Assembly: GCF_035917975.1 (NCBI RefSeq)
Contig: NZ_CP109130.1
Span: forward strand, 2,356,001-2,420,000
Origin: Streptosporangium sp. NBC_01756
Lineage (GTDB): Bacteria > Actinomycetota > Actinomycetes > Streptosporangiales > Streptosporangiaceae
Length of the DNA stretch: 64,000 bases
Direction of reading: 5' to 3'
Shown here: positions 32,938 through 64,000 of the stretch, one piece after another
Position numbering within the stretch: the first letter of the stretch is position 1
Layout: every line of letters begins with the position of its first letter
Position numbers and translations under genes: made by a program
The notes under the pieces: model-generated
Told to the model about the DNA's origin: nothing
Databases searched by the model: none
What the model saw: the letters and a program-made list of their open reading frames with translations, nothing else

Positions 32938-32957
32938 CATCACGAAAGGGAGCGGTA

Positions 32958-37302: not shown

Positions 37303-37446
37303 ATGACGTCTTCGGACCCCGCCACGCCACCCGGCCGACGCCAAGCGCTTCGCGTCATGCGAGACCGGATCCTCGCCCACCACGACGGGCCTCGTGCCGA
37401 CCCGGCGCCCGCGACTGCTTCCCCATCGGCGGAGCGGTGCTCGTGA
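37303..37446 (+). CDS. 47-aa ORF coupled to the MFS gene
   Basis: The frame reads MTSSDPATPPGRRQALRVMR through to PSAERCS and ends in TGA at 37444-37446, overlapping the GTG of the MFS gene by four bases (GTGA). I recognise no domain. It could be a short leader peptide needed for coupled translation of the transporter, or the stub of a lost regulator. Confidence 0.4.
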   Translation: MTSSDPATPPGRRQALRVMRDRILAHHDGPRADPAPATASPSAERCS

Positions 37447-40747: not shown

Positions 40748-42310
40748 TCAGCCGCGTTTCCCCACCGCGAGGAGCATGTCGGCCGCCTCACCCGCCAGCC
40801 GTCCCCTGTCCACCTTCCGGTTGGAGTTCAGCGGGAACTCCTCGACGTGCCGGTAGTGCCTGGGCTGCATTCCCCGGGGAAGGAGCTTGCCGACCTGGCG
40901 GGCGAGTTCGGCCGGGGCGGCGGGAACCCCGGTGTAGAAGACGACGAGCTCGGTTCCGTTCTCGGTCTCCCTGGTCACGGTGACCGCGTCGTCCACGCCC
41001 TGGCACTGGCTGATCGCGTGGTCGACCTCGGCGAGCTCGACCCGCCAGCCCTGGACCTGGACCTGGGCGTCCAGGCGGCCGAGGTAGAGGAGCTCGCCGT
41101 TCGCGAGGCGCCGGACCCGGTCCCCGGTGCGGTACCAGGTGCGCCCGTCGTACGGGAGGAACCTGCCCTCGTCGTCGGCCGGGTCGAGATATCCGGCGGT
41201 CATCTGCGGGCCCGTGATGCACAGCTCGCCTTCGGCCTCGGCGACCTGCCCGTCCGGGGCCACCAGGATGTGGTCATGGCCCTCGTGCACCGCCCCGATG
41301 GGGACGAGGCCGTTCACGCCCAGTTCGGGGGAGGTCTCCGCGGCCCAGCGGTGCCCGGTCACGGTGATGGTCAGCTCCGTCGGGCCGTACAGGTTCTCCA
41401 CGGCCGAGCCGCTCGCCGCCGCCTGCCAGTCCGCCGCGTCCGAGGACTTCAGCGCCTCCCCGGCGAACAGGCTCCAGCGCAGCGTCGGCAGCGATCCGGG
41501 GGCGAGGCCGCCCAGCCTGCGCACCAGCGAGATCGCGATCGGTGTGGAGAACCACACCGTCATCCCCCTCTCCGCTAAGAAGGCGGGCATGTCCCGGTAG
41601 GCCTGCGCCGGCACCGAGTGCACGCTCGCCCCCGCGCCCCAGGCGCAGAACAGGTCGAACATCGCGCAGTCGAAGTTCAGGTCGAAGGTCTGGGAGAAGA
41701 CGTCGTCGGCGGTGAAGTCGTAGCGCTCGTCCAGCAGCCGGAAGTAGTGATCGGTGCTGCCGTGCGTGATCGGCACGCCCTTGGGACGGCCCGTCGAACC
41801 CGAGGTGAACAGCACATACGCGACGTCGGACGCCTGGACGGGCCGTGGCTCGCCGAGGGAGTCCGCCGGTGAGATCGGGACGGTGCGGAACGGCCCGCCG
41901 TCGGCGCCGCCGATCGGGAGCACCGGGACCTCCGGCCACGGGCCGGAGAGCTCCGACAGCGTGGCCAGCCCCTGACCGTCGGCCAGCAGCGCGGAGACCC
42001 CCGCCGCCTCCAGCATCCGCTGGGTGCGCGCCGCCGGGAAGTCCGCGTGCAGCGGCACGACCGTGACGCCGGCGTAGAGCCCGGCGAGGATGGCGACGTA
42101 GGTGTCGATCCCCCTGCCGGCCAGCACGCCGACGGCCCCGGGTGGCTCATCCGAACCGGCGAGCAGCGAACCCGCCCACTGCAGCGCCTTCTCATGGGCC
42201 GCCTCGTAAGTGATCGTCTCGGCGCCGACGCGGACGGCGGGGCGTCCCGCCGACACGGCGAGTCCGCGCAGGAAACGCGCGTAAAGCGCGTTCTCAGTCG
42301 CCACGTTCAT
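40748..42310 (-). CDS. Free-standing adenylation enzyme A1 (amino-acid:ACP ligase)
   Basis: The 520-aa ANL-family enzyme activates an amino acid as its AMP ester and loads a carrier protein. Core motifs: YVLFTSGSTGRPKGVPITHG (A3), SQTFDLNFDCAMFDLFCAWG (A4, with the Asp that holds an alpha-amino group in FDCA), NLYGPTELTITVTG (A5), TWYRTGDRVRR (A7), GRLDAQVQVQGWRVEL (A8) and NRKVDRGRL (A10 Lys). The ATG at 42310 has GGAGG 4 bases before it; no carrier or condensation domain is fused. It is divergent from the discrete carrier gene. By analogy to VinM of vicenistatin synthesis I infer it may add the capping amino acid, with the second ligase (47.9 kb) loading the starter; the roles could be swapped. 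Confidence 0.87.
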   Translation of the reverse strand: MNVATENALYARFLRGLAVSAGRPAVRVGAETITYEAAHEKALQWAGSLLAGSDEPPGAVGVLAGRGIDTYVAILAGLYAGVTVVPLHADFPAARTQRMLEAAGVSALLADGQGLATLSELSGPWPEVPVLPIGGADGGPFRTVPISPADSLGEPRPVQASDVAYVLFTSGSTGRPKGVPITHGSTDHYFRLLDERYDFTADDVFSQTFDLNFDCAMFDLFCAWGAGASVHSVPAQAYRDMPAFLAERGMTVWFSTPIAISLVRRLGGLAPGSLPTLRWSLFAGEALKSSDAADWQAAASGSAVENLYGPTELTITVTGHRWAAETSPELGVNGLVPIGAVHEGHDHILVAPDGQVAEAEGELCITGPQMTAGYLDPADDEGRFLPYDGRTWYRTGDRVRRLANGELLYLGRLDAQVQVQGWRVELAEVDHAISQCQGVDDAVTVTRETENGTELVVFYTGVPAAPAELARQVGKLLPRGMQPRHYRHVEEFPLNSNRKVDRGRLAGEAADMLLAVGKRG

Positions 42311-42369
42311 CATTCCTCCGAGAAAAGGGGTGCGACAACGACTTGTCTTCTGCGTTGAACCAAGCTTAT

Positions 42370-42387
42370 CTTTCTCATCGGAGAAAG
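42370..42387. promoter_or_regulatory. Palindrome in the A1/ACP divergent promoter region
   Basis: CTTTCTC-ATCG-GAGAAAG is a perfect 7-bp inverted repeat in the 102-base gap between the two divergent starts. It is a candidate operator for a shared regulator, or a short stem in the carrier mRNA leader. Confidence 0.45.
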
Positions 42388-42412
42388 AATCCCGATATAG
42401 TTTGGAGCCACT

Positions 42413-42661
42413 ATGTGGGACGATGAGTTCGAACAAATCCTGCGCACCTCCCTGCCGTTTCTGGGAGATGACGAAGAGCTGAAGGAGGACACTGACCTGC
42501 GGTCTCTCGGCCTGGACTCCATGGGCACGGTCGACCTGCTCGCAAAGCTGGAGAAGAAATACGACGTGCGATTCCTCGACGAGGCCCTGAGCATGGAAAC
42601 GTTCGCCACACCACGCAGCCTGTGGACGACCCTCTCAACAATGACCGGGTCGACAGTCTGA
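42413..42661 (+). CDS. Discrete acyl/peptidyl carrier protein
   Basis: The 82-aa stand-alone carrier protein is a four-helix bundle with the phosphopantetheine site Ser in [18 protein letters not shown] (Ser ~36). It is acidic before the site ([12 protein letters not shown]), as in ACP/PCPs. The ATG follows TTTGGAGCC. Being next to A1 and the discrete AT, it is the likely shuttle that carries the activated amino acid (VinL-like role). The PPTase at 25.8 kb would activate it. Confidence 0.9.
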
Positions 42662-42726
42662 AATCGAGCGGAACTGCCCTCCGAGCAATCGGACGGCATT
42701 TCCGCTCTATATTCATGCCACCACGC

Positions 42727-43668: not shown

Positions 43669-43952
43669 CGTGGTATCTCCCTTCGCCTGTCTCCCTCAGG
43701 ACTGGGTCGCAACTGCCACCCAAGCAAGTCTGTGCGGGAGACGGCCTTTTCCAGAACCCCTAACGGCCCTTACTTCCACCCCGCGACAAGCACATTTCTC
43801 TCATGCGCGCTTCTTCGAATAAGGGGACCAAGGGGCCCGGACAGGGGATGACAGGGAGCCCGTTCCACATTGAGATGGTTTAGTGCCAGTACTTCACCGG
43901 CAGGATTATGCCTGTTCTGGAATCGTTCAGGCGATCGAAGGGCGACCATCGC

Positions 43953-45167
43953 ATGACTGAAAACAGCAACGAGCCCCCTGTCTTCCCCATGGCCAGGAAG
44001 TGCCCGTTCGACCCGCCACCCGAGTACGCGAAGATGCGTGCCGAAGACCCGGTCACCAAGGTGAAACTCCAGTGGTCGCAAAAAGAATTCTGGGTGGTCA
44101 CCCGGCAGGAGCACGTACGGCAGGTCCTCAGCGACTCGACGATGAGCTCGAATTGGAAACTGCCGCATTATCCGCTCCAGGTCCCCGTTCCCGATGAAAT
44201 GCTCCAGCAGTTGGAGCTGCCGCTGGTCGGCACGGACCCGCCGGAGCACAGCCCCCGGCGCCGCATGCTCATCCCGGAGCTGACCGCCAAGCGGGTCCAG
44301 GCCCTGCGTCCCCGCATCCAGGAGATCGTGGACGACCACATCGACGCGATGCTGAAGGCCGGCGGACCGGTCGACCTGGTGACGGCCCTGGCCTTCCCGG
44401 TGCCGGCCCTGCTCTTCTGCGAACTGCTCGGCGTCCCGGCCGAGGACAGCGACTTCTTCCGGTCGGCGGCCGAGACGCTGGTCAGGACCGACGTCGAGCA
44501 GGACGAGATGATCCGGTCGCAGATCGCACTGGAGGCCTACCTCGACAAGCTCGTCACGCGGAAGGAGACCGAGGAGGGCGACGACCTGCTCCGCAGGATC
44601 GTCGTCAAGAACCGCGAGACTCCGACGATCGAGCGGCGTGACATCGTCAACCTGGCCAAGAACCTGCTGTTCGGCGGGTTCGACACCACCTCCAACATGA
44701 TCGCGCTGGGCGTGCTCGTCCTGCTGGAGAACCCCGACCAGCTCGCCGCGGTCAGGGAGGACCCCTCGCTGCTCCCCCAGGCGATCGAGGAGCTGATCCG
44801 CTACCTCAGCATCGCCGACTCCAGCCCGGCCAGGGCCGTGCGGCAGGACGTCGAGGTCGGCGGGGTCCTCATCCGCGAGGGTGAGGGCATCATCGCGCTC
44901 ACCGCCTCCGCCAACCGAGACGAGTCGGTCTGGGAGGACGCCGACACGTTCGACATCTACCGCAAACCCATCATGCACTCCGCCTTCGGCCACGGGATCC
45001 ACCAGTGCCCCGGCGCCAACCTCGTGCGCTACGAACTGGAGATCGTGTTCGGGACCCTGATCAGCCGCATCCCCGGCCTGCGGCTCGCGGTGCCGCTGGA
45101 CGAGATCGCCTTCAAGAGCGGCACCCTCGTCCAGGGCGTACACGGCGAACTGCCCGTCACCTGGTGA
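43953..45167 (+). CDS. Cytochrome P450 monooxygenase
   Basis: The 404-aa bacterial P450 has the I-helix LLFGGFDTTSNM (~238-249), the ExxR in IEELIRYL (~284), and the heme-binding loop SAFGHGIHQCPGANLVRYEL with Cys ligand (~351). The ATG at 43953 gives the usual length; an ATG at 43908 adds 15 residues without P450 character. It lies alone on the plus strand between two minus-strand blocks and ends in a strong terminator. Tailoring oxidation of the polyketide or hydroxylation of the starter amino acid are both possible. Confidence 0.93.
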   Translation: MTENSNEPPVFPMARKCPFDPPPEYAKMRAEDPVTKVKLQWSQKEFWVVTRQEHVRQVLSDSTMSSNWKLPHYPLQVPVPDEMLQQLELPLVGTDPPEHSPRRRMLIPELTAKRVQALRPRIQEIVDDHIDAMLKAGGPVDLVTALAFPVPALLFCELLGVPAEDSDFFRSAAETLVRTDVEQDEMIRSQIALEAYLDKLVTRKETEEGDDLLRRIVVKNRETPTIERRDIVNLAKNLLFGGFDTTSNMIALGVLVLLENPDQLAAVREDPSLLPQAIEELIRYLSIADSSPARAVRQDVEVGGVLIREGEGIIALTASANRDESVWEDADTFDIYRKPIMHSAFGHGIHQCPGANLVRYELEIVFGTLISRIPGLRLAVPLDEIAFKSGTLVQGVHGELPVTW

Positions 45168-45197
45168 GGCCGGGCGGACCCGCCCGGACACAGAGCG

Positions 45198-45230
45198 AAG
45201 GGATTGCCGAGGCACCGGCAATCCCTTCTT
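45198..45230 (+). terminator. Terminator after the P450 gene
   Basis: A perfect 12-bp stem (45198-45209 with 45216-45227, 6-base loop) ends in a CTTCTT pyrimidine tail. It separates the P450 from the convergent aminotransferase gene. Confidence 0.85.
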
Positions 45231-45255
45231 CCGTACGCCGAGGACGACCCCGGCC

Positions 45256-46512
45256 TCACGCACACAACTTGGTGAAACTCTCCTCGATCCTGGTCAGCAG
45301 GTCGACGATGTGGGGCAGCCGCAACGGGTCGGCGGCGCGCAGCGCCTGCCGCTGCTCCTTCGCCGTGTCGCCGTAGAGGATGCCCGTCGCGATCTTGACC
45401 CGCAGCGCCTTCTCGCTGTCACCGAGGTGGTGGCCGCCGAGCACCGCGATGCCGTACGAGTCCAGGAGGTGCTGGGTCAGCGAGGCGGAGTCCGTGACGC
45501 CGCGCCGGGTCAGCCGCTCACGGACCGGCTCGAAGTCGGGATAGATGTAGAACCCGCCGGTCGGCTGCCGGCACGAGGCCCCGGCTCCGACCACGATCTC
45601 GTGCATCGCCCGGGCCATGGCGCCGTGCAGCCGCGCGCAGTCCGCCAGGTGTGCGCGGATCTCGGGCGGCTCGGACAGCGCGTACGCCGCGACGTCCTGC
45701 ATGGGGGTGGCCAGGGCGGACCACACCTCGCTCGCGAACGAGGTGACGCCCGCCTGGATCCGGCGCCCCCACGCCCCCGAGGGGAAGCGCGCCAGGCCGA
45801 TCCGCCAGCCGCCGACCGCGAGGCTCTTGCTGAGTCCCGTGGTGACGACGGTGCGTTTCGGCACCACCTCGGCCGGGCTGAGCACGGGATGGTAGGGGTC
45901 GTGGACGATGTCCCGATAGATCTCGTCGGAGACGATGAGCAGGTCCTCCTCCTCGGCGATCGCGCAGAGCTCGCGCACGAGCGCCGGTGAGGCGATGGTC
46001 CCGGTCGGGTTGTCGGGGAGGGTCATGACCAGGATCCTCGGATCGTGGTCGAGCACCCGGGCCGCGTCGATCGCCTCCCTGAGCGCCTCGGGTTCCGGCA
46101 CGCCGCCGCACTCGTCGGGGATCGGCACGCTGATCGCCGTCTTACCCGCGAGATGGGCCTGCGGTGCGTAGCTGTTCCAACTCGGGCGGGGCAGCAGCAC
46201 GTCACCGGGGACGACCATGTTCAACGCCATCAGCAGCGGTTTGCTGCCGGGGGCGACGATCACCTGGTCCGGTCCGGTGGGCATGCGGCGGCGGGTGAAG
46301 TAACCCGCCGCCGCCTCGCGGACCGCCGCGTCACCGGCGACGGGGCCGTAGGCGTTGCGCCCTGCGCTGGTGACGAGCCGGTCGATCAGAGCAGGGTGAA
46401 CGGGCAGGCGCGCCTCGCCGAACCCGAGGTGGACGATCTGTTCACCTCGGGCCTTGCGTTCCGCGACAAGCTGGTTGAGGGCTAAGTTGGGCGAGATTCT
46501 TCCACTGGCCAA
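45256..46512 (-). CDS. PLP-dependent class I/II aminotransferase
   Basis: The 418-aa fold-type I PLP enzyme has the Schiff-base Lys in TTGLSKSLAVGGWRIGLA (~227), Asp/Tyr contacts in LIVSDEIYRDIVHDP (~190) and NPTGT (~165). It starts at a TTG (46512) with AAGGGATC upstream; there is no in-frame ATG near. Codon 10 (46483-46485) is TTA, a second candidate for bldA control in the cluster. It lies only 12 bases after the aminomutase gene, so both act in amino-acid starter supply. It may form the alpha-amino acid from a keto acid (which would fit the leuA gene) or process the beta-amino acid. A decarboxylase-like side activity cannot be excluded. Confidence 0.88.
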   Translation of the reverse strand: MASGRISPNLALNQLVAERKARGEQIVHLGFGEARLPVHPALIDRLVTSAGRNAYGPVAGDAAVREAAAGYFTRRRMPTGPDQVIVAPGSKPLLMALNMVVPGDVLLPRPSWNSYAPQAHLAGKTAISVPIPDECGGVPEPEALREAIDAARVLDHDPRILVMTLPDNPTGTIASPALVRELCAIAEEEDLLIVSDEIYRDIVHDPYHPVLSPAEVVPKRTVVTTGLSKSLAVGGWRIGLARFPSGAWGRRIQAGVTSFASEVWSALATPMQDVAAYALSEPPEIRAHLADCARLHGAMARAMHEIVVGAGASCRQPTGGFYIYPDFEPVRERLTRRGVTDSASLTQHLLDSYGIAVLGGHHLGDSEKALRVKIATGILYGDTAKEQRQALRAADPLRLPHIVDLLTRIEESFTKLCA

Positions 46513-46524
46513 TGCGAGATCCCT

Positions 46525-47844
46525 TCATGGGTGCCGTCTGACGGCCGCCGTCAGGTCGGCATCGGTCGCCGGGTCGAGTTCGAGGTCGTCGAGCCACGAA
46601 GCGCTGCTGGAGAATCGCGCTCGGAACGGCCGGCCGACCAGCGACGGGTCACGCGCCTGCAGGAAGCGGAGCTGGAAGAAACGCCCTTCGGACGTCTCCT
46701 CCACCCCGTCCACGGCGACCTTGCCCGGCGTGGCCGACATGACCGGCCCGCGCACGGTGCGCGCCAGGCCGGGAAGCCTCTGGTACGCCTCGCGGAAGAT
46801 CTCCTGCGAGCGGGCCAGCGGAACCTTGAAGTAGCCGTGCGGGCCCGTGTCCCGCTCCACGAACATGTAGTAGGGCACCGCTCCGGCCGCCAGTTCCGCG
46901 CGCCACAGCTCGCTCCAGACATCTGGATCGTCGTTGACGTGAGCGATGATCGGCGCCTGGCAGTAGACCAGCGCGCCGGTCGTCCTGATGCGGGCCACCG
47001 CCTGCCGGGCCGGTCCGGTCGCGAGTTCGCGCGGATGGCTGAAGTGCGCCATCACCGCGAGGTTGCGCCCCGAGGCCACCACCTCCTCATAGAGCCGCAG
47101 GACGTCGTCGGCGTCCTTGTCCGTGACGAAGCGGTGCGGCCAGTAGGCGACCGACTTCGTGCCGATGCGGATGGTGCGGACCGTGTCGATCGCGAGCAGC
47201 GGCTCCAGGTGGCTGCGCAGCCGCTCGGTGGACATCACCATGGGGTCGCCGCCGGTGACCAGCACGTCGCTGACCTCCGGATGCCGGCGCAGGTAGGAGA
47301 CCAGCTGCTCGGGACCGGGCGCCGCGAAGCGCAGGTCCGCGTCCCCGACGAACTGCGCCCACCGGAAGCAGTAGGTGCAGTACGTGTGACAGGTCTGGCC
47401 CTGGCCGGGGAAGTACAGCACGGTCTCGCGGTACTTGTGCTGCATCCCCGGCAGCGCGGCACCGTCGTCGGTGGGCACGTTGAGCTCGCGCTGGCCGGAC
47501 GGATGCGGGTTCAGGGTCTCCCTGATCCGCTGCACCTCCGCCTTGAGCCCGGCCCGGTCGCCGGCCGCGTCCGCCGCGGCGAGGCGCCGGAGATCGTCGT
47601 CCGCCAGCATGCCCCGCTGGGGGAAGACCAGCTGGAAGACGGGATCCTCGGGGATCCGCCGCCAGTCGATGAGTTCTGACAGGACGTACTCGTTCACCCG
47701 GAACGGCAGCACCATCGAGATCAGCCGTACGGCCTCCCGGACGTCGTCGGGGAGCCCGTACCTCTGGGCGATCTCGTTGATGTGCCGCGGCCCGTAGGCG
47801 CGGAAGCGAGCAGTCTCGATGGGATCGAGGGTCAGCAGGGACAT
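46525..47844 (-). CDS. Radical-SAM 2,3-aminomutase (KamA family), probably not lysine-specific
   Basis: The 439-aa enzyme would shift an amino group from C2 to C3 using PLP and S-adenosylmethionine. The radical-SAM cluster CHTYCTYC (CX3CX2C, ~152-159), the GGE-like VTGGDPMV motif and the PLP-Lys motif SATPGKVAVDG are in KamA order. Lysine-binding Asp293 of KamA is kept (HVNDD), but the position of Asp330 (KamA YYIYQCD) is Arg here (YYMFVER). The epsilon-amino pocket is therefore changed, and lysine is a poor guess; glutamate or a hydrophobic amino acid is more likely. The ATG at 47844 has GGAGG 9 bases ahead. It is 25 bases after adenylase A2, which should load its beta-amino acid product. 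Confidence 0.9.
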   Translation of the reverse strand: MSLLTLDPIETARFRAYGPRHINEIAQRYGLPDDVREAVRLISMVLPFRVNEYVLSELIDWRRIPEDPVFQLVFPQRGMLADDDLRRLAAADAAGDRAGLKAEVQRIRETLNPHPSGQRELNVPTDDGAALPGMQHKYRETVLYFPGQGQTCHTYCTYCFRWAQFVGDADLRFAAPGPEQLVSYLRRHPEVSDVLVTGGDPMVMSTERLRSHLEPLLAIDTVRTIRIGTKSVAYWPHRFVTDKDADDVLRLYEEVVASGRNLAVMAHFSHPRELATGPARQAVARIRTTGALVYCQAPIIAHVNDDPDVWSELWRAELAAGAVPYYMFVERDTGPHGYFKVPLARSQEIFREAYQRLPGLARTVRGPVMSATPGKVAVDGVEETSEGRFFQLRFLQARDPSLVGRPFRARFSSSASWLDDLELDPATDADLTAAVRRHP

Positions 47845-47869
47845 CCGACCAGTCCTCCGGTCTTGTGGA

Positions 47870-49414: not shown

Positions 49415-49434
49415 CAACGTCTCACCTTCACCAG

Positions 49435-54732: not shown

Positions 54733-54747
54733 GGGTCAGCCTCTCGC

Positions 54748-57700
54748 TCAGTTGGAGTCGCCGGTCGCGAGGGCCGCGCGGACGAGGTCATCGATCGCCA
54801 TGTTCCTGATCGCGTCGCTCTGGTCGGCGGCCGGTCGACTCGGCTGGGCCTGGTCTGGTGTGGCGAGTCCGAGGAGCGCGTCAAGCAGCCCGGCCTCGCG
54901 CAACCTGGTGATCGGGATCCCCTCGATGGCCGCGCGGATCTCGCTCTCCTCCATGTCCACGGCCGGCGCGTCCTCGATGTCGGGCAGGAGCTCGGCGAGC
55001 AGGAAGGCGGCCAGCGCGGACGGGTTGGGGTAGTCGAACATCAGCGTCGCGGGCAGCCGGAGCCCGGTGGCGGTCTGCAGCCGGTTGCGCAGCTCGATCC
55101 CGGCCAGCGAGTCGAGTCCCATCTCGGTGAACCCGCGGTCGGGCTCGATCGCGTCGGGCTCGTCGTGGCGCACCGCCGCGACGTGCGTCCGGACCAGGTC
55201 GAGCAGGACCCTGTCCCGCTCGGCCCGGCCGAGCCCGGCGAGACGCTGCTCCAGCGGCACCGGGCTCGCGGAGGCCGCGGCCTGGGGCGCCCGCCGGGGT
55301 GCGGACCGCGTAGGACGGCGGCTGTTCGTCCGGACTATGTCGCGGAACATGGCGGACACCTCGGCTCCCGAGGCGGCGAGCTTCTCCGCGTCCAGCCGCA
55401 TCGGGACCAGTAGCGCCTCGCCGAGACCGACGGCCTCGTCGAAGAGCACCAGCCCCTCGGCCGACGAGATCGGCGGCATGCCCTGCCCGGCCATCCGCTG
55501 CTCCTCCGTCCCGGCGTCGACCGCCGTCCCGCCGAGCCCGGTCTGCGTCGTCCACAGTCCGTAGGCCAGTGCGGTGGCCGGGAGACCCGCGGCCCGGCGC
55601 TGCCAGGCCAGCGCGTCGCCGAACCTGTTGGCCGCCCCGTAGTTCGCCTGGCCCGCCCCCATCACCAGTCCGGAGACGGAGGAGAACAGCACGAACGCCG
55701 ACAGGTCGAGGCCGGCGGTCAGCTCGTGCAGGTTCCAGGCGCCCGCGACCTTGGGGGCGAGGACGTCGTCGAACTGCCGGGAGGTGAGCGATTCGAGCAA
55801 GCCGTTGTCCATGACGCCGGCGGCGTGCACCACGCCGCGCAGCGGGTGCGCGTCCGGGATCGACGCCAGCGTCTCCGCCAGGGCGTCCCGGTCGGCGACG
55901 TCGCACGCGGCCACGGTGACGCTCGCACCCAGCCCGCCCAGTTCCTCGCGCAGCTCCGCGACCCCGGCGGCGTCGGGGCCCCGGCGGCTGGTCAGCAGCA
56001 GATGCCTGACTCCGTGCACGGACACGAGGTGCCGGGCCACCAGGGCGCCCAGTCCGCTCGTCCCCCCGGTGACCAGGACCGTGCCCGAACCGTCCCACGG
56101 CGCGGCGCTCTCCACGTCGCTCGCCGGCACCCCGGCCAGGCGCGGCACCCGTACGTCGATGCCACGCACCGCGATCTCCGGTTCGCCGAGTGAGGGCAGG
56201 TAGGACGGCATCCGGTCGTCGTCGAGGTCCACCAGCAGGAACCGGCCGGGGTTCTCCGCCTGGGCGCCGCGGACCAGGCCCCACACCGGCGCGAGCCGTA
56301 CGTCGACCTCGTCCTCCTCCGCCACGCCGACGGCGCCACGGGTGACGACCACCAGCCGGGATGAGGCGAACCGCGGTTCGGCGAGCCAGGACTTCAGTGT
56401 GCCGAGCACCCGGTCCAGCACCGAGCGCACGGCCGCGGACATCTCGCCGGCGGGCGCGGGGCAGGGCAACGCCACCAGTTCCGGTACGGCGGCGCCGCCG
56501 TCGACGGCTGTGACCAGCGCGTCGAGGTCCGGGAACACGGCCGCGCCGTCGAGGCCGAGGCCGTCGGTGCCGAGCACCGCCCAGACGCCGGGCGCGGCCT
56601 CCGCGGCGGTGCCGACCGGCAGGTGGCTCCAGCCGACCTGGTACAGCGACTCCCGCTGCCTGGTGCCCGTGGAGGCCGCCGCCGCGGCGGCGATCCTGTC
56701 CGGTGTGACGGGCCGGACCACCAGCGACTCCACGGTCGCGACGGGCGCGCCCGTGCTGTCTGCGAGTTCCAGCCGCACCGAGTCCGGCCCGATGCCGGTG
56801 ATCCGTACCCGCATCCGCGGCGCGCCGCCGGAGTGCAGGGTGACGCCGGTCCAGGCGAAGGGGAGCTGCGAGGCTCCGATGTCCTGCGGCATGCGCCCGC
56901 CGAGGAAGTCGGTGGCGCTCAGCGCGGCGTCGAGCAGCGACGGGTGCACGCGGAACTCGGCCGCGTCGGTCCACGCCTCGTCGGGGAGCGCGACCTCGGC
57001 GAAGACCTCCTCACCCCGCCGCCAGACCGAGCGCAGGCCGCGGAACATCGGGCCGTAGTGGTAGCCCTGGCTGGTGAGGTAGTCGTAGACGTCGCTGATG
57101 TCCACCGCCTCGGACCCGGCGGGCGGCCAGACGCCGGACCCGAGCTGGAACGACGCGGGGGTCACCGGCGTGTCCTCTCCGGCGGCCAGGACACCCGACG
57201 CGTGCCGGGTCCACGGCACATGCGGTGGCGCGTCCTCCACTCTGGAGTACACCGTCAGGGGGCGCCTGCCGGAGCCGTCCGCCTCGCCGACGACGACCTG
57301 GATCGCGGTGCCGCCGGTCTCGGTGAGCGTCATCAGCGCCTCGATCGTGAGCTCCTCGACCAGGTCGCAGCCCACCTCCTCACCGGCACGCAGCGCCAGC
57401 TCCACATATCCGGTGCCGGGCAGCAGGAGGGTGCCCTGCACGGCGTGGTCGGCCAGCCACGTCTGCGTGTCGATGGCCAGCCGGCCGGTGAGCACCACGC
57501 CGCCCGCCTCCGGTGCGGCGACCACCGCGCTCAGCAGCGGGTGCTCCGCCGCCTGCTGGCCGCTCATGACCACGTCGCCGCCGGTGGTGGGCGGGGCGTC
57601 CAGCCAGTAGCGGCGCTTCTCGAACGCGTACGTCGGCAGTTCGACCCGGCCGGGGCGCCATCCGGCGAAGAACCTCCCCCAGTCGGGGCTCGCGCCCGTC

Positions 57701-60700
57701 CCGTGCAGCCGGGCGACCGCGGTGACCGCGGTCTCGGCCTCCGGCCTGTCCCGGCGCAGCACGGGAACCAGCGTCCGGCCGGACCCGGTGAGGCAGTTCT
57801 CGGCCATCGCGGTGAGCACGCCGTCGGGGCCCAGCTCGACGAACCAGGTCACCCCTTCCGACTCCAGGTGGCGCACGCCGTCGGCGAAGCGGACCGCCTC
57901 ACGCACGTGCCGCACCCAGTAGTCCGCGTCCTGCGTCTCGGCCAGGCCGCCGGTCAGGTTGGACACCACGCGGATCCTCGGCTCGTGGTAGGCGAGCCGC
58001 CGGGCGACGTTGCCGAACTCCTCCAGCATCGGCTCCATCAGCACCGAGTGGAACGCGTGCGAGACCCGCAGCCGGGTGGTCTTGCGGCCCTCGGCGGTCA
58101 GCCGTGCCGCGATCTCCTCGACCACGTCCGCCACCCCGGACACGACCACCGAGCGCGGCCCGTTCACCGCCGCGATACTCACCCGATCGGTCACCAGCGG
58201 CAGGACCTCCTCCTCGGTCGCCTGCACCGCGATCATCGCGCCCCCCTGCGGAAGCGCCTGCATCAACCGGCCGCGAGCCGCCACCAGGGTGCAGGCGTCC
58301 GGCAGGGACAGCACCCCCGCCACATGGGACGCCGCCAACTCCCCGATGGAGTGGCCCATCACGACGTCGGGGGCCAGCCCCCACGACTCGACGAGCCGGA
58401 ACAGCGCGACCTCGACCGCGAACAGTCCGGCCTGGGTGTACACCGTCTGGTTCAGCAGGTCGGCGTCCTGCCCCCACATCACCTCGCGCAACGGCTGCGG
58501 GAGATGCGGGTCCAGGTGTCCGCACACGGTGTCCAGCGCGTCGGCGAACACCGGGAAGGTCTCGTACAGCTCCCGGCCCATGCCCAGCCGCTGCGCGCCC
58601 TGGCCGGTGAACAGGAACGCGGTCAGCCCCGTGGCGGAGGCCGACCCCCGCACCACGTCCGCCGGTTCCTCGTCCCGTGCGAGCGCGGTGAGCGCGCGCA
58701 GTGCGGCCTCGTGGTCGGAGGCGAGCACCACCGCGCGGTGCTCCAGCGCGGCCCGGGTCGTCGCCAGCGAGAAGCCGACGTCGACCAGTCGCGAGCCGGG
58801 GTCCGCGGTGAGGTGCTCCCGCAGCCGTTCCGCCTGCGCGGGCAGGGCCTTCGCGGTCTTCGCCGACAGCACCAGCGGCACGAGCGGCGGTTCCGGTACG
58901 GCGTCCGCCGGCTCGGTGTGGTCCGCCCGGGGCGCCTGCTCGACGATCACGTGCGCGTTGGTGCCGCTCAGCCCGAACGACGAGACGCCGGCCCGCCTCG
59001 GGTGGCCGTTCTCCGGCCACGAGACCGCCTCGGTGAGCAGCTTCACGTTGCCCGCCGACCAGTCCACCTGCGGCGACGGCTCCTCGGCGTACAGGGTGGG
59101 AGGCAGCGTCCCGTTCCGGATGGCCTCGACCATCTTGATCACACCGGCCACGCCCGCCGCCGCCTGCGCGTGTCCCATGTTCGACTTGATCGACCCCAGC
59201 CAGAGCGGCCGGTCCTCGGGCCGGTCCTGACCGTAGGTGGCCAGCAGCGCCTGCGCCTCGATCGGGTCACCCAGCCGGGTGCCGGTGCCGTGCGCCTCCA
59301 CCGCGTCCACCTCGGAGGTCGTCAGCCCGGAGGCGGCCAGCGCCCGCTGGATCACCCGCTGCTGGGACGGCCCGTTGGGAGCCGTCAGCCCGTTCGACGC
59401 GCCGTCCTGGTTGATCGCCGAGCCGCGCACGACGGCCAGCACGGGGTGGCCGTTGCGCTCCGCGTCCGACAGCCGTTCGAGCAGCAGGACGCCGATGCCC
59501 TCGCTCCAGCCCGTGCCGTCCGCCCCGGAGCCGAACGACCTGCAACGGCCGTCCGCCGACAGGCCGCGCTGGCGGCTGAAGTCCACGAACACATCCGGCG
59601 TCGGCAGCACCGTCACGCCGCCTGCGAGCGCCATGGAGATCTCGTTCTGGCGCAGCGCCTGGCAGGCCAGGTGGATGGCCACCAGCGAGGACGAGCAGGC
59701 CGTGTCCACGGTGACCGCGGGGCCTTCGAGGCCGAGCGTGTAGGCGACCCGTCCCGAGGCGATGCTCGCCGCGCTGCCGTTGCTGAGGTAGCCGGCCAGA
59801 TCGTCCGGCACACTCGACAGCCGGCTGCCGTACTCGTGGTACATCACACCCGCGTAGACACCGGTCTGGCTGCCGCGCATCGACTCGGGGTCGATCCCGC
59901 CCAGCTCGAACGCCTCCCATGCCGCCTGGAGCAGCAACCGCTGCTGCGGGTCCATGGCCAGCGCCTCGCGCGGCATGATGCCGAAGAACTCGGGGTCGAA
60001 CTCCGTCGCGTCGTGCAGGAACCCACCGCGGCGCGCGTAGGTCTTGCCCGGTGTGCCGGGCTCGGGGTCGTAGACGCCGTCGACGTCCCAGCCGCGGTCG
60101 GCGGGGAAGTCCGAGGTCGCGTCCACCCCGTCGGCCACCAGCCGCCACAGGTCCTCCGCGGAGCGCACGCCGCCGGGGAACCGGCAGCTGATCGCGACGA
60201 TCGCGATCGGCTCGTCCGGCGACACCGTGGCGGTCGTCGTGGCGGCCGGCGCAGGTGCCGTGACGGCCACGCCGGAGAGCTTCGTCTTGAGGTAATCGGC
60301 AGCCGCACGGGTGGTCGGGTAGTCGAACACCAGTGTGGCGGGCAGCTGCAGGCCGGTGGCCGACCTCAGCGCGTTGCGCAGTTCCACTGCGGCCAGCGAG
60401 TCGAACCCGAGCTCCTTGAAAGCCCGGTCGGGACCGACCGCTCCGGCATCGGCGTGGCCCAGCACGGTCGCGACGTGGGCGCGCACCAGTTCCAGCAGCG
60501 CGCGGTCGCGCTCCGCCTCGGTGAGCCCGGCGAGCCGGCGTGCCAGCGCGTCGCCCTCCCCTTCCTGGCCCGCGCCGCTCGCCATCCGGCGGGCCGGGCC
60601 GCGCACGAGTCCGCGCAGCAGCGCGGGGATCTCGTCGGCCCTGGCCCGGAGGGTGGCCTGGTCCACGTTGACGGACACCACCGCGGCCTCTCCGGTGGCG

Positions 60701-63700
60701 AGCGCCGCGTCGAACGACGCCAGTCCCTCTGCCACGGTCAGCGCGGGCAGCCCCAGGCGCCGCATCCGGTCCAGGTCGGAGCCGGTCAGCTCGCCACCGA
60801 GGCCGGTGTTCACCTCCCAGAGGCCGAAGGCCATCGCGGTCGCGGGCAACCCCGACGCCCTGCGATGCGCCGCCAACCCGTCCAGGAACACATTCGCCGC
60901 CGCATAATTGCCCTGCCCCGCGGCCAGCACCAGACCACCCGCCGAAGAGAACAACACGAACGCCGACAACCCCAGATCCGCCGTCAACTCATGCAGATGC
61001 CACGCCGCGTCCGCCTTCGGCGCCAGCACCGCATCCAACCGCTCCGCCGTCAGCGCACCGACCAGGCCGTTGTCAGCCACCCCCGCCGCATGCACCACAC
61101 CGGTCAACGAACCGATCCCCGCCACCAACTCCGCGAGCGCATCCCGGTCGGCCACATCACACGCCGCGACCGTGACCTCGGCACCCAACCCGGACAGCTC
61201 CCGCTGCAACTCCACCGCACCCGGAGCAGCCAGCCCCCGACGACTGGTCAGCACCAACTCCCGCACCCCGTGCTCCACCACCAGATGACGAGCCACCAAA
61301 GCACCCAGACCACCCGTACCACCCGTGACCAGCACCGCACCCGTCCCCCAGTCCGGGACCGCCGCCGTCACCGCCACCCTGCTCAGACGCGGCACCCGCA
61401 CCTCACCCCGGCGCACCGCCAGCTCGGGCTCCCCCGAGCCGGCGATCCGGGGCAGGACCCGGGCGGAGTCCTCCGTCCCGTCGACGTCGACGAGCACGAT
61501 CCGGCCGGGGTTCTCCGCCTGAGCCGCACGGACCAGACCCCACACCGGCGCCTGCCGTACGTCGACGTCCTCGTCCGGCTCCACCGCGACCGCACCCCGG
61601 GTCACCACCACCAACCGCGAAGCGGCGAACCGCTCCTCGGCCAGCCAGCCCTGGATCGCCGCCAGCGCGTGACCGCCCACCGTACGCACATCGGACAGGA
61701 CCTCACCCGACGGCGCAGCACACTCCACAACCACCACCCCGGGCACCACACCACCCAGCGAGGACAGCTCCTCACCCGCCCCGACCACGACCCAGCCATC
61801 CGCCTGAGCCGTGGGTGCGGCTATCTCGGTCCAGTCCACCTTGAACGGTGACCGGCGCTGATCGCCCTGCGCGGCGTTGAGCTGTTCGGCCGAGACGGGC
61901 AACGAGACCAGCGAGCCGACCGACAGCACCGGCCGGCCGGTCGCGTCGGCCACGTCGATGGCGGAGACCTCCTCGCCGCGGATCCGGCGGATGCGTACCC
62001 GCAGCTCGGTCGCCCCCGCCGCGTGCAGGGTCACCCCGGCCCAGGTGAAGGGCAGCAGGGTCCGGCCCGCCTCGGCGAGCAGGTCGGCGTGCATCGCCGT
62101 GTCCAGCAGCGCCGGGTGCAGCCCGAACCGCCGGGCCTCGTCGTGTGCCTCTTCGGGGAGGGCGACCTCGGCGAACACGTCGTCGCCCGACTTCCAGGCC
62201 GCCTTCAGCCCCTGGAACAGCGGCCCGTAGCCGTAGCCCCGGGCGGCCAGGTGCTCATAGGCGCCCTCGACCTCGATCGCGGTCGCGCCACGCGGCGGCC
62301 ACTGTGCCAGGTCGAAGGTGGGAACCTCCGCGTCGCGGGCGAGGGCACCGGTAGCGTGCCGGGTCCACGGGCGGTCCCCTTCGTCATCCCTGGAGTAGAT
62401 GTTGATCGGTCGCAGGCCCGTCGTGTCCGGCTCGCCGACGACGACCTGCAGGGCGAGGCCGCCGCGCTCGGGCAGCACCAGCGGCGCCTCCAGGGTCAGC
62501 TCGTCGATGCGCCCGCAGCCCACCTGGTCGCCCGCCCGCGCCGCCAGCTCGACGAATCCGGTGCCGGGCAGCAGGATCCGGCCGAGCACGCCGTGGTCGG
62601 CGATCCACGCCTGGGCGTCCAGCGACAGGCGCCCGGTCAGCACCACTCCGCCCGAGTCCGGGGCCACGAGTGCGGCGCTGAGCAGCGGGTGCTCGACCGG
62701 CTCCAGGCCGGCCGAGCCGACGTCGCCGGTCTGCCTGCCCGAGACGTCCAGCCAGTACCTCTTCCGTTGGAAGGCGTAGGTGGGCAGGTCGATCCCGGTG
62801 ACGGCGGCTCCGGAGAAGAAGGCCTTCCAATCGAGCGCGATGCCACGGGCATAGGCCCGGCCCAGCGCCGAAAGCAACTCACGCCGCTCGTCACGGCCCC
62901 GACGCAGCACGGAGACGAACGCCATACCGTCCTCATCGGCGACGCCACCGGCGGCCATCGCCGACAACACCGCGTCCGGACCCAGCTCGACGAACGTCAC
63001 GGCCCCGCGCTCCGCCAGCCACGCCACCCGATCGGTGAACCGGACCGCGTCCCGCACATGCCGCACCCAGTACTCCGGGTCCCGCACCTCCGCCAGAGCG
63101 ATCGGGACCGTCGGCGGGTGGTAGGTCAGCCCTTCGGCGACCTGCCGGAACTCGGCCAGCATCGGCTCCATCAACACCGAGTGGAACGCGTGGGAGACCT
63201 TCAACCGGGTGGTCTTACGGCCCTCGGCGGCGAACCGGGCGGCGATCTCCACCACCGCGTCCTCCACCCCCGACACCACCACCGACCGCGGACCGTTCAC
63301 CGCCGCGACACTCACCCGCTCGGTCACCAGCGGAAGCACTTCCTCCTCGGTCGCCTGAATCGCGACCATCGCCCCACCCGCCGGGAGCGCCTGCATCAAC
63401 CGGCCCCGAGCCGCCACCAACCGAGCCGCATCCGACAGCGACAACACCCCGGCGACATGCGCCGCGGCCAACTCCCCGATGGAATGCCCGGCCAGGTAGT
63501 CCGGCCGCACCCCCCACGATTCGACGAGCCGATACAGCGCCACCTCAACCGCGAACGTCGCCGTCTGAGTGAACACCGTCTGGTTCAGCAGCTCCGCGTC
63601 ATGCCCCCACATCACCTCACGCAGCGGGAGATCCAGGTGCCCGTCGAGCTCGGCCAGCACCGCGTCCAACACGTCGGCGAACACCGGGAAGGCCTCGTAC

Positions 63701-64000
63701 AACTCTCGGCCCATGCCGAGCCGTTGGGCGCCCTGACCGGTGAACAGGAACGCGAGCCTGCCCGACCGGACCGAGTCCTGGACCACACCCTCGCCCGCCG
63801 ACACCCCGGTGGACCCATCGGCCAACACCGCCAGACCGTCCAGCATCGCCGCACGATCCTCGCCCAGCAGCACCGCCCGATACTCCAACGCCGCACGCGT
63901 CGTAGCGAGCGCAGAACCCACCACCGCCAGCCGGTCCTCCGGCAACGACTCCACATGGGAACGGAGCTTCCCCGCCTGCGCCCGCAACGCCTGCGGCGAC
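54748..64000 (-). CDS. Type I PKS, at least two modules, 5' end outside the window
   Basis: The open frame runs past the right edge (the Met at 63987 is internal). What is visible is AT-DH-KR-ACP of one module (AT GHSIGE at ~63480, HAFHS ~63180; DH from ~62700; KR GGTGGLG ~61320; ACP LGFDSLAAVEL ~60410). A complete module follows: KS (EPIAIVAISCRFPGG at ~60210; TACSSS ~59695), AT (GHSIGE ~58355, HAFHS ~58050), DH ~57545-56900, KR GGTSGLG ~56065, ACP MGLDSLAGIEL ~55110, then a docking tail (IRNMAIDDLVRAAL) for the next PKS. Both ATs look malonyl-specific, and both DH His/Asp motifs and KR Ser/Tyr residues are present, so each module should install a double bond. With the next gene this predicts at least a conjugated triene. 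All three KRs read V/A/M-D-N where B-type KRs have L-D-D. Confidence 0.95.
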   Translation of the reverse strand, partial: SPQALRAQAGKLRSHVESLPEDRLAVVGSALATTRAALEYRAVLLGEDRAAMLDGLAVLADGSTGVSAGEGVVQDSVRSGRLAFLFTGQGAQRLGMGRELYEAFPVFADVLDAVLAELDGHLDLPLREVMWGHDAELLNQTVFTQTATFAVEVALYRLVESWGVRPDYLAGHSIGELAAAHVAGVLSLSDAARLVAARGRLMQALPAGGAMVAIQATEEEVLPLVTERVSVAAVNGPRSVVVSGVEDAVVEIAARFAAEGRKTTRLKVSHAFHSVLMEPMLAEFRQVAEGLTYHPPTVPIALAEVRDPEYWVRHVRDAVRFTDRVAWLAERGAVTFVELGPDAVLSAMAAGGVADEDGMAFVSVLRRGRDERRELLSALGRAYARGIALDWKAFFSGAAVTGIDLPTYAFQRKRYWLDVSGRQTGDVGSAGLEPVEHPLLSAALVAPDSGGVVLTGRLSLDAQAWIADHGVLGRILLPGTGFVELAARAGDQVGCGRIDELTLEAPLVLPERGGLALQVVVGEPDTTGLRPINIYSRDDEGDRPWTRHATGALARDAEVPTFDLAQWPPRGATAIEVEGAYEHLAARGYGYGPLFQGLKAAWKSGDDVFAEVALPEEAHDEARRFGLHPALLDTAMHADLLAEAGRTLLPFTWAGVTLHAAGATELRVRIRRIRGEEVSAIDVADATGRPVLSVGSLVSLPVSAEQLNAAQGDQRRSPFKVDWTEIAAPTAQADGWVVVGAGEELSSLGGVVPGVVVVECAAPSGEVLSDVRTVGGHALAAIQGWLAEERFAASRLVVVTRGAVAVEPDEDVDVRQAPVWGLVRAAQAENPGRIVLVDVDGTEDSARVLPRIAGSGEPELAVRRGEVRVPRLSRVAVTAAVPDWGTGAVLVTGGTGGLGALVARHLVVEHGVRELVLTSRRGLAAPGAVELQRELSGLGAEVTVAACDVADRDALAELVAGIGSLTGVVHAAGVADNGLVGALTAERLDAVLAPKADAAWHLHELTADLGLSAFVLFSSAGGLVLAAGQGNYAAANVFLDGLAAHRRASGLPATAMAFGLWEVNTGLGGELTGSDLDRMRRLGLPALTVAEGLASFDAALATGEAAVVSVNVDQATLRARADEIPALLRGLVRGPARRMASGAGQEGEGDALARRLAGLTEAERDRALLELVRAHVATVLGHADAGAVGPDRAFKELGFDSLAAVELRNALRSATGLQLPATLVFDYPTTRAAADYLKTKLSGVAVTAPAPAATTTATVSPDEPIAIVAISCRFPGGVRSAEDLWRLVADGVDATSDFPADRGWDVDGVYDPEPGTPGKTYARRGGFLHDATEFDPEFFGIMPREALAMDPQQRLLLQAAWEAFELGGIDPESMRGSQTGVYAGVMYHEYGSRLSSVPDDLAGYLSNGSAASIASGRVAYTLGLEGPAVTVDTACSSSLVAIHLACQALRQNEISMALAGGVTVLPTPDVFVDFSRQRGLSADGRCRSFGSGADGTGWSEGIGVLLLERLSDAERNGHPVLAVVRGSAINQDGASNGLTAPNGPSQQRVIQRALAASGLTTSEVDAVEAHGTGTRLGDPIEAQALLATYGQDRPEDRPLWLGSIKSNMGHAQAAAGVAGVIKMVEAIRNGTLPPTLYAEEPSPQVDWSAGNVKLLTEAVSWPENGHPRRAGVSSFGLSGTNAHVIVEQAPRADHTEPADAVPEPPLVPLVLSAKTAKALPAQAERLREHLTADPGSRLVDVGFSLATTRAALEHRAVVLASDHEAALRALTALARDEEPADVVRGSASATGLTAFLFTGQGAQRLGMGRELYETFPVFADALDTVCGHLDPHLPQPLREVMWGQDADLLNQTVYTQAGLFAVEVALFRLVESWGLAPDVVMGHSIGELAASHVAGVLSLPDACTLVAARGRLMQALPQGGAMIAVQATEEEVLPLVTDRVSIAAVNGPRSVVVSGVADVVEEIAARLTAEGRKTTRLRVSHAFHSVLMEPMLEEFGNVARRLAYHEPRIRVVSNLTGGLAETQDADYWVRHVREAVRFADGVRHLESEGVTWFVELGPDGVLTAMAENCLTGSGRTLVPVLRRDRPEAETAVTAVARLHGTGASPDWGRFFAGWRPGRVELPTYAFEKRRYWLDAPPTTGGDVVMSGQQAAEHPLLSAVVAAPEAGGVVLTGRLAIDTQTWLADHAVQGTLLLPGTGYVELALRAGEEVGCDLVEELTIEALMTLTETGGTAIQVVVGEADGSGRRPLTVYSRVEDAPPHVPWTRHASGVLAAGEDTPVTPASFQLGSGVWPPAGSEAVDISDVYDYLTSQGYHYGPMFRGLRSVWRRGEEVFAEVALPDEAWTDAAEFRVHPSLLDAALSATDFLGGRMPQDIGASQLPFAWTGVTLHSGGAPRMRVRITGIGPDSVRLELADSTGAPVATVESLVVRPVTPDRIAAAAAASTGTRQRESLYQVGWSHLPVGTAAEAAPGVWAVLGTDGLGLDGAAVFPDLDALVTAVDGGAAVPELVALPCPAPAGEMSAAVRSVLDRVLGTLKSWLAEPRFASSRLVVVTRGAVGVAEEDEVDVRLAPVWGLVRGAQAENPGRFLLVDLDDDRMPSYLPSLGEPEIAVRGIDVRVPRLAGVPASDVESAAPWDGSGTVLVTGGTSGLGALVARHLVSVHGVRHLLLTSRRGPDAAGVAELREELGGLGASVTVAACDVADRDALAETLASIPDAHPLRGVVHAAGVMDNGLLESLTSRQFDDVLAPKVAGAWNLHELTAGLDLSAFVLFSSVSGLVMGAGQANYGAANRFGDALAWQRRAAGLPATALAYGLWTTQTGLGGTAVDAGTEEQRMAGQGMPPISSAEGLVLFDEAVGLGEALLVPMRLDAEKLAASGAEVSAMFRDIVRTNSRRPTRSAPRRAPQAAASASPVPLEQRLAGLGRAERDRVLLDLVRTHVAAVRHDEPDAIEPDRGFTEMGLDSLAGIELRNRLQTATGLRLPATLMFDYPNPSALAAFLLAELLPDIEDAPAVDMEESEIRAAIEGIPITRLREAGLLDALLGLATPDQAQPSRPAADQSDAIRNMAIDDLVRAALATGDSN

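What the first reader, a model, noticed from the sequence alone, without database searches (positions are those of the whole stretch)
40748..64000. Core of a candidate beta-amino-acid-primed polyene macrolactam cluster
Seen: two free-standing adenylation enzymes, one discrete carrier protein, one discrete AT, a 2,3-aminomutase with an aminotransferase, and three consecutive malonyl-type KS-AT-DH-KR-ACP modules. Known: in vicenistatin-, incednine- and hitachimycin-type pathways a beta-amino acid is adenylated onto a free carrier, capped with a second amino acid, and handed by a VinK-type AT to the PKS; the amine later closes a lactam. Inferred: this locus makes a polyene macrolactam with an aminomutase-derived starter. 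The mix with leuA and a catalytically altered transthyretin-fold protein is unlike the pathways I can recall.
Basis: partly seen in the sequence, partly recalled or inferred. Interest (0 to 1): 0.8.

Follow-up and report, generated by a model that had tools for sequence, protein, structure and literature searches.

The report
Ordinary 3-aminobutyrate-primed polyene macrolactam cluster
This is a complete but conventional antibiotic-type gene cluster that very probably makes a ring-shaped polyene starting from the small amino acid 3-aminobutyrate, by a pathway already known from incednine and pretilactam.

Summary
The window lies on one 9.0 Mb contig, so I read past its right edge. The locus holds all five shared parts of beta-amino-acid-primed macrolactam pathways: an IdnL1-type adenylation enzyme, a free carrier protein, a VinM/IdnL7-type second adenylation enzyme, a VinK transferase, and a VinJ peptidase outside the window. 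The first PKS opens ACP-KS, not KSQ-AT-ACP. Eleven modules and a terminal TE predict a 26-membered lactam.

The radical SAM aminomutase plus "aminotransferase" pair matches the published IdnL4/IdnL3 and pretilactam plmK/plmJ pairs, where glutamate becomes beta-glutamate and then (S)-3-aminobutyrate. The PLP gene is therefore most likely a decarboxylase. The starter is known, not new.

Close relatives exist: a colinear 10-module Streptomyces cluster, a 13-module cluster in a related genus, and a pretilactam-like Micromonospora cluster.

leuA is a second IPMS paralogue lying between two regulators (SARP and LAL). That arrangement recurs in related genomes, in 7 of 8 loci looked at without a PKS match within the 14-20 kb fetched, so it is probably not a starter gene. 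I did not identify the product or find the transthyretin-fold protein.

The parts
47870..49417 (-). A1: beta-amino-acid adenylation enzyme, IdnL1/HitB/CmiS6 type (names of the PDB entries recalled)
   Evidence: phmmer vs PDB: 7dq5 706 bits, 5jjq 678, 5jjp 658; pocket stretch [18 protein letters not shown] identical to 5jjq, 7dq5 reads QFDFALFDIG; the Leu-Leu of SLLDIG kept in 15 of 16 A1 relatives aligned
46525..47844 (-). KamA-family radical SAM 2,3-aminomutase, IdnL4/PlmK type (glutamate 2,3-aminomutase by orthology)
   Evidence: NCBIfam KamA hits, all below cut-offs; 74% to the Actinosynnema pretiosum protein P0096; CxxxCxxC read from sequence
45256..46512 (-). Fold-type I PLP enzyme annotated as aminotransferase; by conserved pairing the IdnL3/PlmJ-type beta-glutamate decarboxylase
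   Evidence: PF00155 E 6e-45; beside the aminomutase in 19 of 80 loci, all 19 with KamA at 66% or more; 418 aa vs 419 aa for plmJ
43908..45167 (+). Cytochrome P450, CYP105-like, probable tailoring hydroxylase
   Evidence: PF00067 E 4e-28; 2z36 359 bits
42727..43668 (-). VinK-type dipeptidyl acyltransferase
   Evidence: PF21124 E 3.8e-32; 5czc 371 bits over residues 9-310
42413..42661 (+). Stand-alone carrier protein, VinL/PlmF type, 82 aa, GLDSM motif
   Evidence: PF00550 E 1.2e-9 (given with one extra codon in front); reading frame; plmF is 82 aa
40748..42310 (-). A2: second adenylation enzyme, VinM/IdnL7 type (protecting alpha-amino acid)
   Evidence: 8k4r 701 bits, 6akd 632 bits, next best 304
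49435..54732 (-). PKS2: module 4, KS-AT(malonyl)-DH-KR-ACP
54748..64000 (-). PKS1 (continues to 70989): loading ACP then modules 1-3, each KS-AT(malonyl)-DH-KR-ACP; in the window module 3 whole and module 2 without its KS
39001..40653 (-). MFS exporter
   Evidence: PF07690 E 2.8e-44; 53-55% homologue in the G147 cluster
37437..38771 (+). MFS transporter, membership of the cluster uncertain
   Evidence: PF05977 E 9.3e-33; no match in the G147 stretch
33122..36313 (+). FtsX-like permease (plm5-like; true start probably downstream)
   Evidence: PF02687 E 2.4e-29; homologues in G147 (38%) and G005 (45%) clusters; plm5
32919..33722 (+). ABC transporter ATPase (plm4-like)
   Evidence: PF00005 E 6.8e-34; 67% in the G147 cluster
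31992..32870 (+). Type II thioesterase
   Evidence: PF00975 E 1.6e-55; 58% in the G147 cluster
15858..18665 (-). LAL-type LuxR regulator (probable cluster regulator)
   Evidence: AAA_16 + GerE; 62% in the G147 cluster
18708..20450 (-). leuA2, second 2-isopropylmalate synthase paralogue, in the regulatory cassette
   Evidence: NF002991 738 bits, over its cut-off of 455; housekeeping copy elsewhere
21761..24826 (+). SARP-NB-ARC-TPR regulator
   Evidence: PF03704 E 1.7e-45, PF00931, TPR; 56% in the G147 cluster

Best explanation
The locus is the left part of a complete type I PKS cluster (about 31-113 kb in window coordinates, with a regulatory cassette from 15.8 kb) that makes a 26-membered polyene macrolactam from an (S)-3-aminobutyrate starter. 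Inferred route: the aminomutase turns glutamate into beta-glutamate; the PLP enzyme decarboxylates it to 3-aminobutyrate; A1 loads that on the free carrier protein; A2 caps it with a small alpha-amino acid; the VinK-type AT moves the dipeptide to the ACP at the N-terminus of PKS1. Eleven malonyl modules extend the chain in the order PKS1 (M1-3), PKS2 (M4), PKS3 (M5, KS-AT-ACP, leaves a ketone), PKS4 (M6, KR only, leaves a hydroxyl), PKS5 (M7-10), PKS6 (M11-TE). The VinJ-type peptidase removes the cap and the TE closes the lactam. P450, FAD, luciferase-like/flavin-reductase and SDR enzymes tailor it. Predicted aglycone: tetraene - C15 ketone - C13 hydroxyl - pentaene amide, C26H31NO3, [M+H]+ 406.238 (worked out by hand). 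Gene content, domain order and homology are shown; every chemical step is inferred from characterised relatives.
For: All five conserved parts are present, each with the characterised type as best or near-best PDB match: A1, A2 (31), VinK (32), VinJ 3wmr 485 bits (34), and the carrier protein by Pfam (79); the links from PDB codes to these names are recalled. A1's pocket stretch is identical to 5jjq, recalled as IdnL1, and its Leu-Leu is kept in 15 of 16 A1 relatives. Aminomutase and PLP enzyme lie side by side in 19 of 80 relatives and are both in the pretilactam table. A loading ACP precedes KS1; 11 KS; all 11 ATs read GHSIG...HAFH; terminal TE. By my reading, the docking tails fall into two classes that leave only PKS1>2>(3,4)>5>6, and gene order in relatives gives 3>4.
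Against: No product is known. The aminomutase scores under every NCBIfam cut-off listed, including glutamate 2,3-aminomutase (88 of 650 bits), and that score is below its lysine score (112 of 525); the position of LAM Asp293 could not be fixed from the alignment. IdnL4 activity has not been seen in vitro (PMC11284099). A1's best PDB match is 7dq5 (beta-phenylalanine type), 28 bits above 5jjq. A1 has Leu where 5jjq and 7dq5 have Phe; among 16 A1 relatives 6 have Leu and 10 Phe. Four ATs carry a 32-aa insertion of unknown effect. Five of nine DHs have another residue for Gly in HxxxGxxxxP. VinK was seen beside the aminomutase in only 5 of 80 loci within the held flanks.
Confidence: 0.88

Rival explanations
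1. The starter is another beta-amino acid made by transamination plus aminomutase, for example a leuA-elongated alpha-keto acid aminated by the PLP enzyme and then shifted by the aminomutase (3-aminopentanoate or longer).
For: leuA2 lies 20 kb to the left and is also in the G147 cluster; the PLP enzyme is annotated as an aminotransferase; A1 has Leu at the 328-like position. PMC11284099 says IdnL1 also accepts 3-aminopentanoate (passage).
Against: leuA2 is next to LAL in 9 of 9 same-genus relatives that have it, and 7 of 8 loci fetched show no match to this cluster's PKS within 14-20 kb. None of the neighbouring proteins scanned by Pfam is leuB or leuC/D, though not every ORF was scanned. The pretilactam table lists the aminomutase and PLP genes and no leuA, and its product has a 3-aminobutyrate-derived end.
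Confidence: 0.06
2. The module order is PKS4 before PKS3, so the hydroxyl is at C15 and the ketone at C13; same class, different product.
For: PKS3 and PKS4 have the same docking classes at both ends, so tails alone do not order them.
Against: Gene order here, in G001 and in G002 is PKS3-like then PKS4-like, and in G147 the gene ending in the KS-AT-ACP module is followed by the KS-AT-KR gene.
Confidence: 0.12
3. An ordinary polyene macrolide or linear polyene with KSQ or acetate loading, with unrelated adenylation genes nearby.
For: None found.
Against: ACP-KS start of PKS1, VinK- and VinJ-type proteins, and the starter genes beside similar PKS genes in G147, G001, G002 and G005.
Confidence: 0.02

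Closest known systems
Pretilactam (plm) cluster, Actinosynnema pretiosum, with mirilactam and salinilactam (PMC6631532)
   Same: 3-aminobutyrate gene set incl. aminomutase (74% identity to the A. pretiosum protein P0096), PLP gene of 419 aa, 82-aa carrier, two adenylation genes, VinK-type AT, peptidase, P450, 11 modules, 26-membered ring; LuxR, ABC and FtsX genes listed beside it
   Different: plm has one methyl branch and a polyol stretch; here all 11 ATs are malonyl-type, with one KR-less module and one KR-only module; PKS gene division differs; FAD, luciferase-like, flavin reductase and SDR genes here are not in the plm table as separate genes
Incednine (idn) starter pathway: IdnL4, IdnL3, IdnL1, IdnL7 (PMC11284099)
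   Same: Aminomutase, PLP enzyme, A1 with identical pocket stretch, A2 of the same family
   Different: Incednine is 24-membered and glycosylated; no sugar gene was among the proteins scanned here
Vicenistatin loading machinery VinN/L/M/K/J
   Same: VinK-type 5czc 371 bits, VinJ-type 3wmr 485 bits, VinM-type 8k4r 701 bits (PDB names recalled)
   Different: A1 is not VinN-like (3wvn, recalled as VinN, only 138 bits), and no glutamate mutase/VinO-type gene was among the proteins scanned
Unnamed cluster in Streptomyces sp. AC1-42W (L018, L098-L102)
   Same: Colinear PKS set with KS-AT-ACP (62%) and KS-AT-KR-ACP (60%) genes, A1, MFS, KamA, PLP gene, A2, VinK
   Different: 10 modules instead of 11
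Unnamed cluster in G147 (same family, other genus)
   Same: Same starter genes, PKS1- and PKS2-like genes, FAD enzyme, luciferase-like enzyme, SDR, ABC, FtsX, TEII, SARP, leuA2, LAL
   Different: 13 modules, one methylmalonyl-type AT; no P450 match among its ORFs

Membership tests
Beta-amino-acid-primed macrolactam pathway | Beta-amino-acid-selective stand-alone adenylation enzyme | tested here: met
   selectivity by sequence only
Beta-amino-acid-primed macrolactam pathway | Stand-alone carrier protein | tested here: met
Beta-amino-acid-primed macrolactam pathway | Second adenylation enzyme of VinM/IdnL7 type | tested here: met
Beta-amino-acid-primed macrolactam pathway | VinK-type dipeptidyltransferase | tested here: met
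Beta-amino-acid-primed macrolactam pathway | Loading ACP at the start of the first PKS | tested here: met
   ACP (LGLDSL motif) then KS1 with DTACSGS
Beta-amino-acid-primed macrolactam pathway | VinJ-type amidohydrolase and terminal TE | tested here: met
3-aminobutyrate (IdnL3/IdnL4) subtype | Paired KamA-type aminomutase and PLP enzyme | tested here: met
   compared with plm by size, annotation and one protein, not with the idn sequences themselves
3-aminobutyrate (IdnL3/IdnL4) subtype | A1 pocket of IdnL1 type | tested here: met
   identical stretch; Leu-Leu kept in 15 of 16 relatives, L029 has Leu-Phe; the 328-like residue differs from 5jjq
3-aminobutyrate (IdnL3/IdnL4) subtype | Glutamate rather than lysine specificity of the aminomutase | tested here: inconclusive
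   gapped and ungapped registers put Glu or Arg at LAM Asp293 (role of that residue recalled); one search scores favour neither
3-aminobutyrate (IdnL3/IdnL4) subtype | Decarboxylase activity on beta-glutamate | not testable with these tools
   needs an enzyme assay
26-membered macrolactam | 11 extension modules on a 3-aminobutyrate starter | tested here: met
   one search counts 11 KS; ring size inferred by analogy with plm

The most novel reading that the evidence does not exclude
Besides a possibly undescribed all-malonate 26-membered macrolactam, the leuA2 paralogue held between a SARP-NB-ARC-TPR regulator and a LAL regulator may be an autoregulator synthase. Its product, 2-isopropylmalate or a close analogue, would be the ligand sensed by one of these two large ATPase regulators and would switch on the cluster. 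The catalytic motifs are kept and the C-terminal region has diverged from the housekeeping copy. leuA2 is next to LAL in 9 of 9 same-genus relatives that have it, but not in two more distant genomes with a 61-66% copy (L146, L151).
Probability: 0.05. Interest if true: 0.7.

Novelty: new member of a known kind. Interest (0 to 1): 0.22.

Why it matters
It is a full, well-bounded macrolactam cluster in a family (probably that of Planomonospora, judged only from the best named protein hit, P0002) where 4 of 341 genomes searched, the own one included, carry this aminomutase type at E 1e-180 or better. The product can be predicted closely enough to look for by mass and polyene UV. For method, it shows that aminomutase plus "aminotransferase" in such clusters should be read as the known glutamate to 3-aminobutyrate route, not as a new starter pathway.

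Tried and rejected
A leuA-fed starter (keto-acid elongation, transamination, aminomutase) was considered and rejected: leuA2 keeps company with regulators, and the published plm gene table has no leuA.

A KSQ or acetate-loaded PKS was tested and rejected.

Lysine as aminomutase substrate: tried through the LAM alignment, inconclusive.

Product identity: papers on pretilactam, streptolactam, weddellamycin and streptolactam D were checked. None has this module pattern in the parts I saw. A search with six terms (macrolactam and five genus names, any two required) held 217 papers and listed 20; judged by titles and abstract starts, none reports a macrolactam from these genera with such a cluster. 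A search for luciferase-like monooxygenase with polyene macrolactam gave 0 papers. This does not show that the product is unpublished.

A first check of A1 pockets by a strict pattern found it in only 7 of 20 loci and not in G147; a proper alignment showed that the pattern was too strict.

Small ORFs 36872-37330 and 5328-5852, tried as candidates for the transthyretin-fold protein, matched no NCBIfam family, so that protein was not found. Three proteins beside the second KamA of the genome gave no Pfam family.


Full report
Where it is. The window is bases 2356001-2420000 of a single 9,002,924-base contig. I fetched the neighbouring stretches and use window coordinates throughout; values above 64000 lie to the right. 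The PKS holds 11 ketosynthases between 53.9 and 108.5 kb.

Starter genes. A1 (47870-49417) matches 7dq5 at 706 bits, 5jjq at 678 and 5jjp at 658; 3wvn scores only 138. I recall these as HitB, IdnL1, CmiS6 and VinN; the tables do not give those names. Over the substrate pocket A1 reads [18 protein letters not shown], identical to 5jjq, while 7dq5 reads QFDFALFDIG. Of 16 other A1s aligned (22 loci and G147 scanned; 7 loci had none at 50% or more), 15 keep the Leu-Leu and L029 has Leu-Phe. The review PMC11284099 (section 5 read) says that specificity can now be predicted from such sequences and lists IdnL1 as 3-aminobutyrate-specific. One pocket residue argues for caution: A1 has Leu where 5jjq and 7dq5 have Phe, as do 6 of the 16 relatives. 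A2 matches 8k4r at 701 bits and 6akd at 632, with everything else at 304 or less; I recall these as VinM and IdnL7. The discrete AT carries the VinK small domain and matches 5czc at 371 bits. The alpha/beta hydrolase at 72327-73418 matches 3wmr, recalled as VinJ, at 485 bits. The carrier protein is 82 aa.

The aminomutase and the "aminotransferase". PMC11284099 (passages) describes IdnL4, a radical SAM enzyme needed for 3-aminobutyrate, and IdnL3, a PLP-dependent beta-glutamate decarboxylase. PMC6631532 (parts 1 and 2 of 4 and the tables read) lists plmK, 450 aa, "l-lysine 2,3-aminomutase", and plmJ, 419 aa, "aminotransferase", and speaks of seven genes for 3-aminobutyrate. Here they are 439 and 418 aa; an Actinosynnema pretiosum aminomutase is 74% identical (P0096). 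The PLP gene lies beside the aminomutase in 19 of 80, all 19 with an aminomutase of 66% or more. None of the 58 loci at 61% or below has it. Three loci at 64-72% lack it (L029, L037, L038), two of them ending close to the gene. A1 at 54% or more is in 15 of 80 and VinK at 50% or more in 5 of 80 within the held flanks. Glutamate specificity rests on this orthology; the direct residue test was inconclusive, and the family scores do not decide it (lysine 112 bits, glutamate 88, both far under cut-off).

The assembly line. PKS1 (54748-70989) starts with an ACP directly followed by KS1, which has an intact DTACSGS motif. Modules M1-4 and M7-11 carry DH and KR, M5 is KS-AT-ACP, M6 has KR without DH, and M11 ends in a TE. 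All 11 ATs have GHSIG and HAFH, read as malonyl-specific. Five of the nine DHs (M1, M7, M9, M10, M11) have Asp, Asn or Glu for the Gly of HxxxGxxxxP; I take them as active, which is an assumption. Docking tails fall into two classes: PKS1 and PKS5 C-termini fit PKS2 and PKS6 N-termini, while PKS2, PKS3 and PKS4 C-termini fit PKS3, PKS4 and PKS5 N-termini. This is my reading; no docking program was run. With the TE in PKS6, the order is PKS1>2>(3,4)>5>6, and gene order here and in relatives gives 3>4. On a 3-aminobutyrate starter this yields a 26-membered ring, as in the 11-module pretilactam, with tetraene, C15 ketone, C13 hydroxyl and pentaene amide, C26H31NO3 (hand calculation).

Relatives. 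Streptomyces sp. AC1-42W has a colinear 10-module version with the same two small PKS genes (PKS3-like 62%, PKS4-like 60%), and Streptomyces sp. 2131.1 a similar one. G147, same family but another genus, has a 13-module version that also shares the FAD enzyme (53%), luciferase-like enzyme (71%), SDR (60%), flavin reductase (60%), ABC (67%), FtsX (38%), TEII (58%), SARP (56%), LAL (62%) and leuA2 (77%). This gives a shared gene set from 15.8 to 112.7 kb, in a different order. Micromonospora wenchangensis has four PKS ORFs close in size to plm (7096, 3008, 1807 and 1586 against 7110, 3092, 1816 and 1606 aa); the fifth, 4031 aa in my rough call and overlapping its neighbour, does not fit plmD at 5400. 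VinK relatives are in 28 of 250 family genomes examined at E 1e-20 or better, and this aminomutase type in 4 of 341 at E 1e-180 or better, the own genome included in both.

leuA. The genome has a housekeeping leuA at 6533818 (873 bits, over the TIGR00970 cut-off of 697). The window copy scores 689, just under it, but is over the cut-off of the NF002991 subfamily. Of 16 same-genus genomes including the own one, 10 have a copy at 60% or more. In the 9 others it is next to a LAL gene each time; a copy in another genus (L146, 66%) and one in another family of the order (L151, 61%) show no LAL in the held stretch. In 7 of 8 fetched loci the SARP gene is also there. One of the 8 shows a PKS match and another a 30% adenylation match within 14-20 kb. 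So leuA2 travels with regulators and is weak evidence for a leucine-type starter. Active-site motifs STDLRDGNQ and HPHNDRGT are kept (catalytic role recalled).

Verdict. The locus is real, complete and well predicted, and it belongs to an established class. The remaining unknowns are the exact product, the tailoring steps and the odd AT insertions. Other papers were seen only as passages (PMC10662134; PMC9230918; PMC7824713; PMC11051340; PMC12063178) or as listings.

Noticed in passing
window 15858-24826: SARP-NB-ARC-TPR gene, leuA2 and LAL gene lie together: leuA2 is next to LAL in 9 of 9 same-genus relatives that have leuA2, and SARP is also adjacent in 7 of 8 fetched loci, 7 of 8 without a PKS match in 14-20 kb. 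A paper search listed 12 of 86 papers, none of the 12 with the words isopropylmalate synthase.
   Followed up: partly
PKS5 (79331-100426) and PKS6 (73256-79324), right of the window: Four of 11 ATs (M7, M8, M9, M11) carry 32 extra residues between GHSIG and HAFH that look like an internal duplication (spacing 131 against 99); 0 of 43 ATs measured in the four related clusters exceed 103.
   Followed up: partly
window 28995-31036: IS21-type istA/istB pair inserted between the MFS gene (27509-28762) and the type II thioesterase side of the cluster.
   Followed up: no
window 12164-15739: Biotin carboxylase and carboxyltransferase genes next to the cassette; the carboxyltransferase is 83% identical to one in the G147 stretch, where the biotin carboxylase gave no match; both are in G150. 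Possibly malonyl-CoA supply.
   Followed up: partly
G000:C1:3762690-3763943 (in L119 and L179): Second KamA-family protein, 58% identical to the cluster one, like a widespread group (Nocardiopsis, Marinobacter, Myxococcales and others) without the PLP partner. Three nearby proteins match no Pfam family.
   Followed up: partly
right of the window, 108609-112669: FAD enzyme, luciferase-like monooxygenase and flavin reductase at the right end of the cluster, shared with G147; tailoring role unknown.
   Followed up: partly
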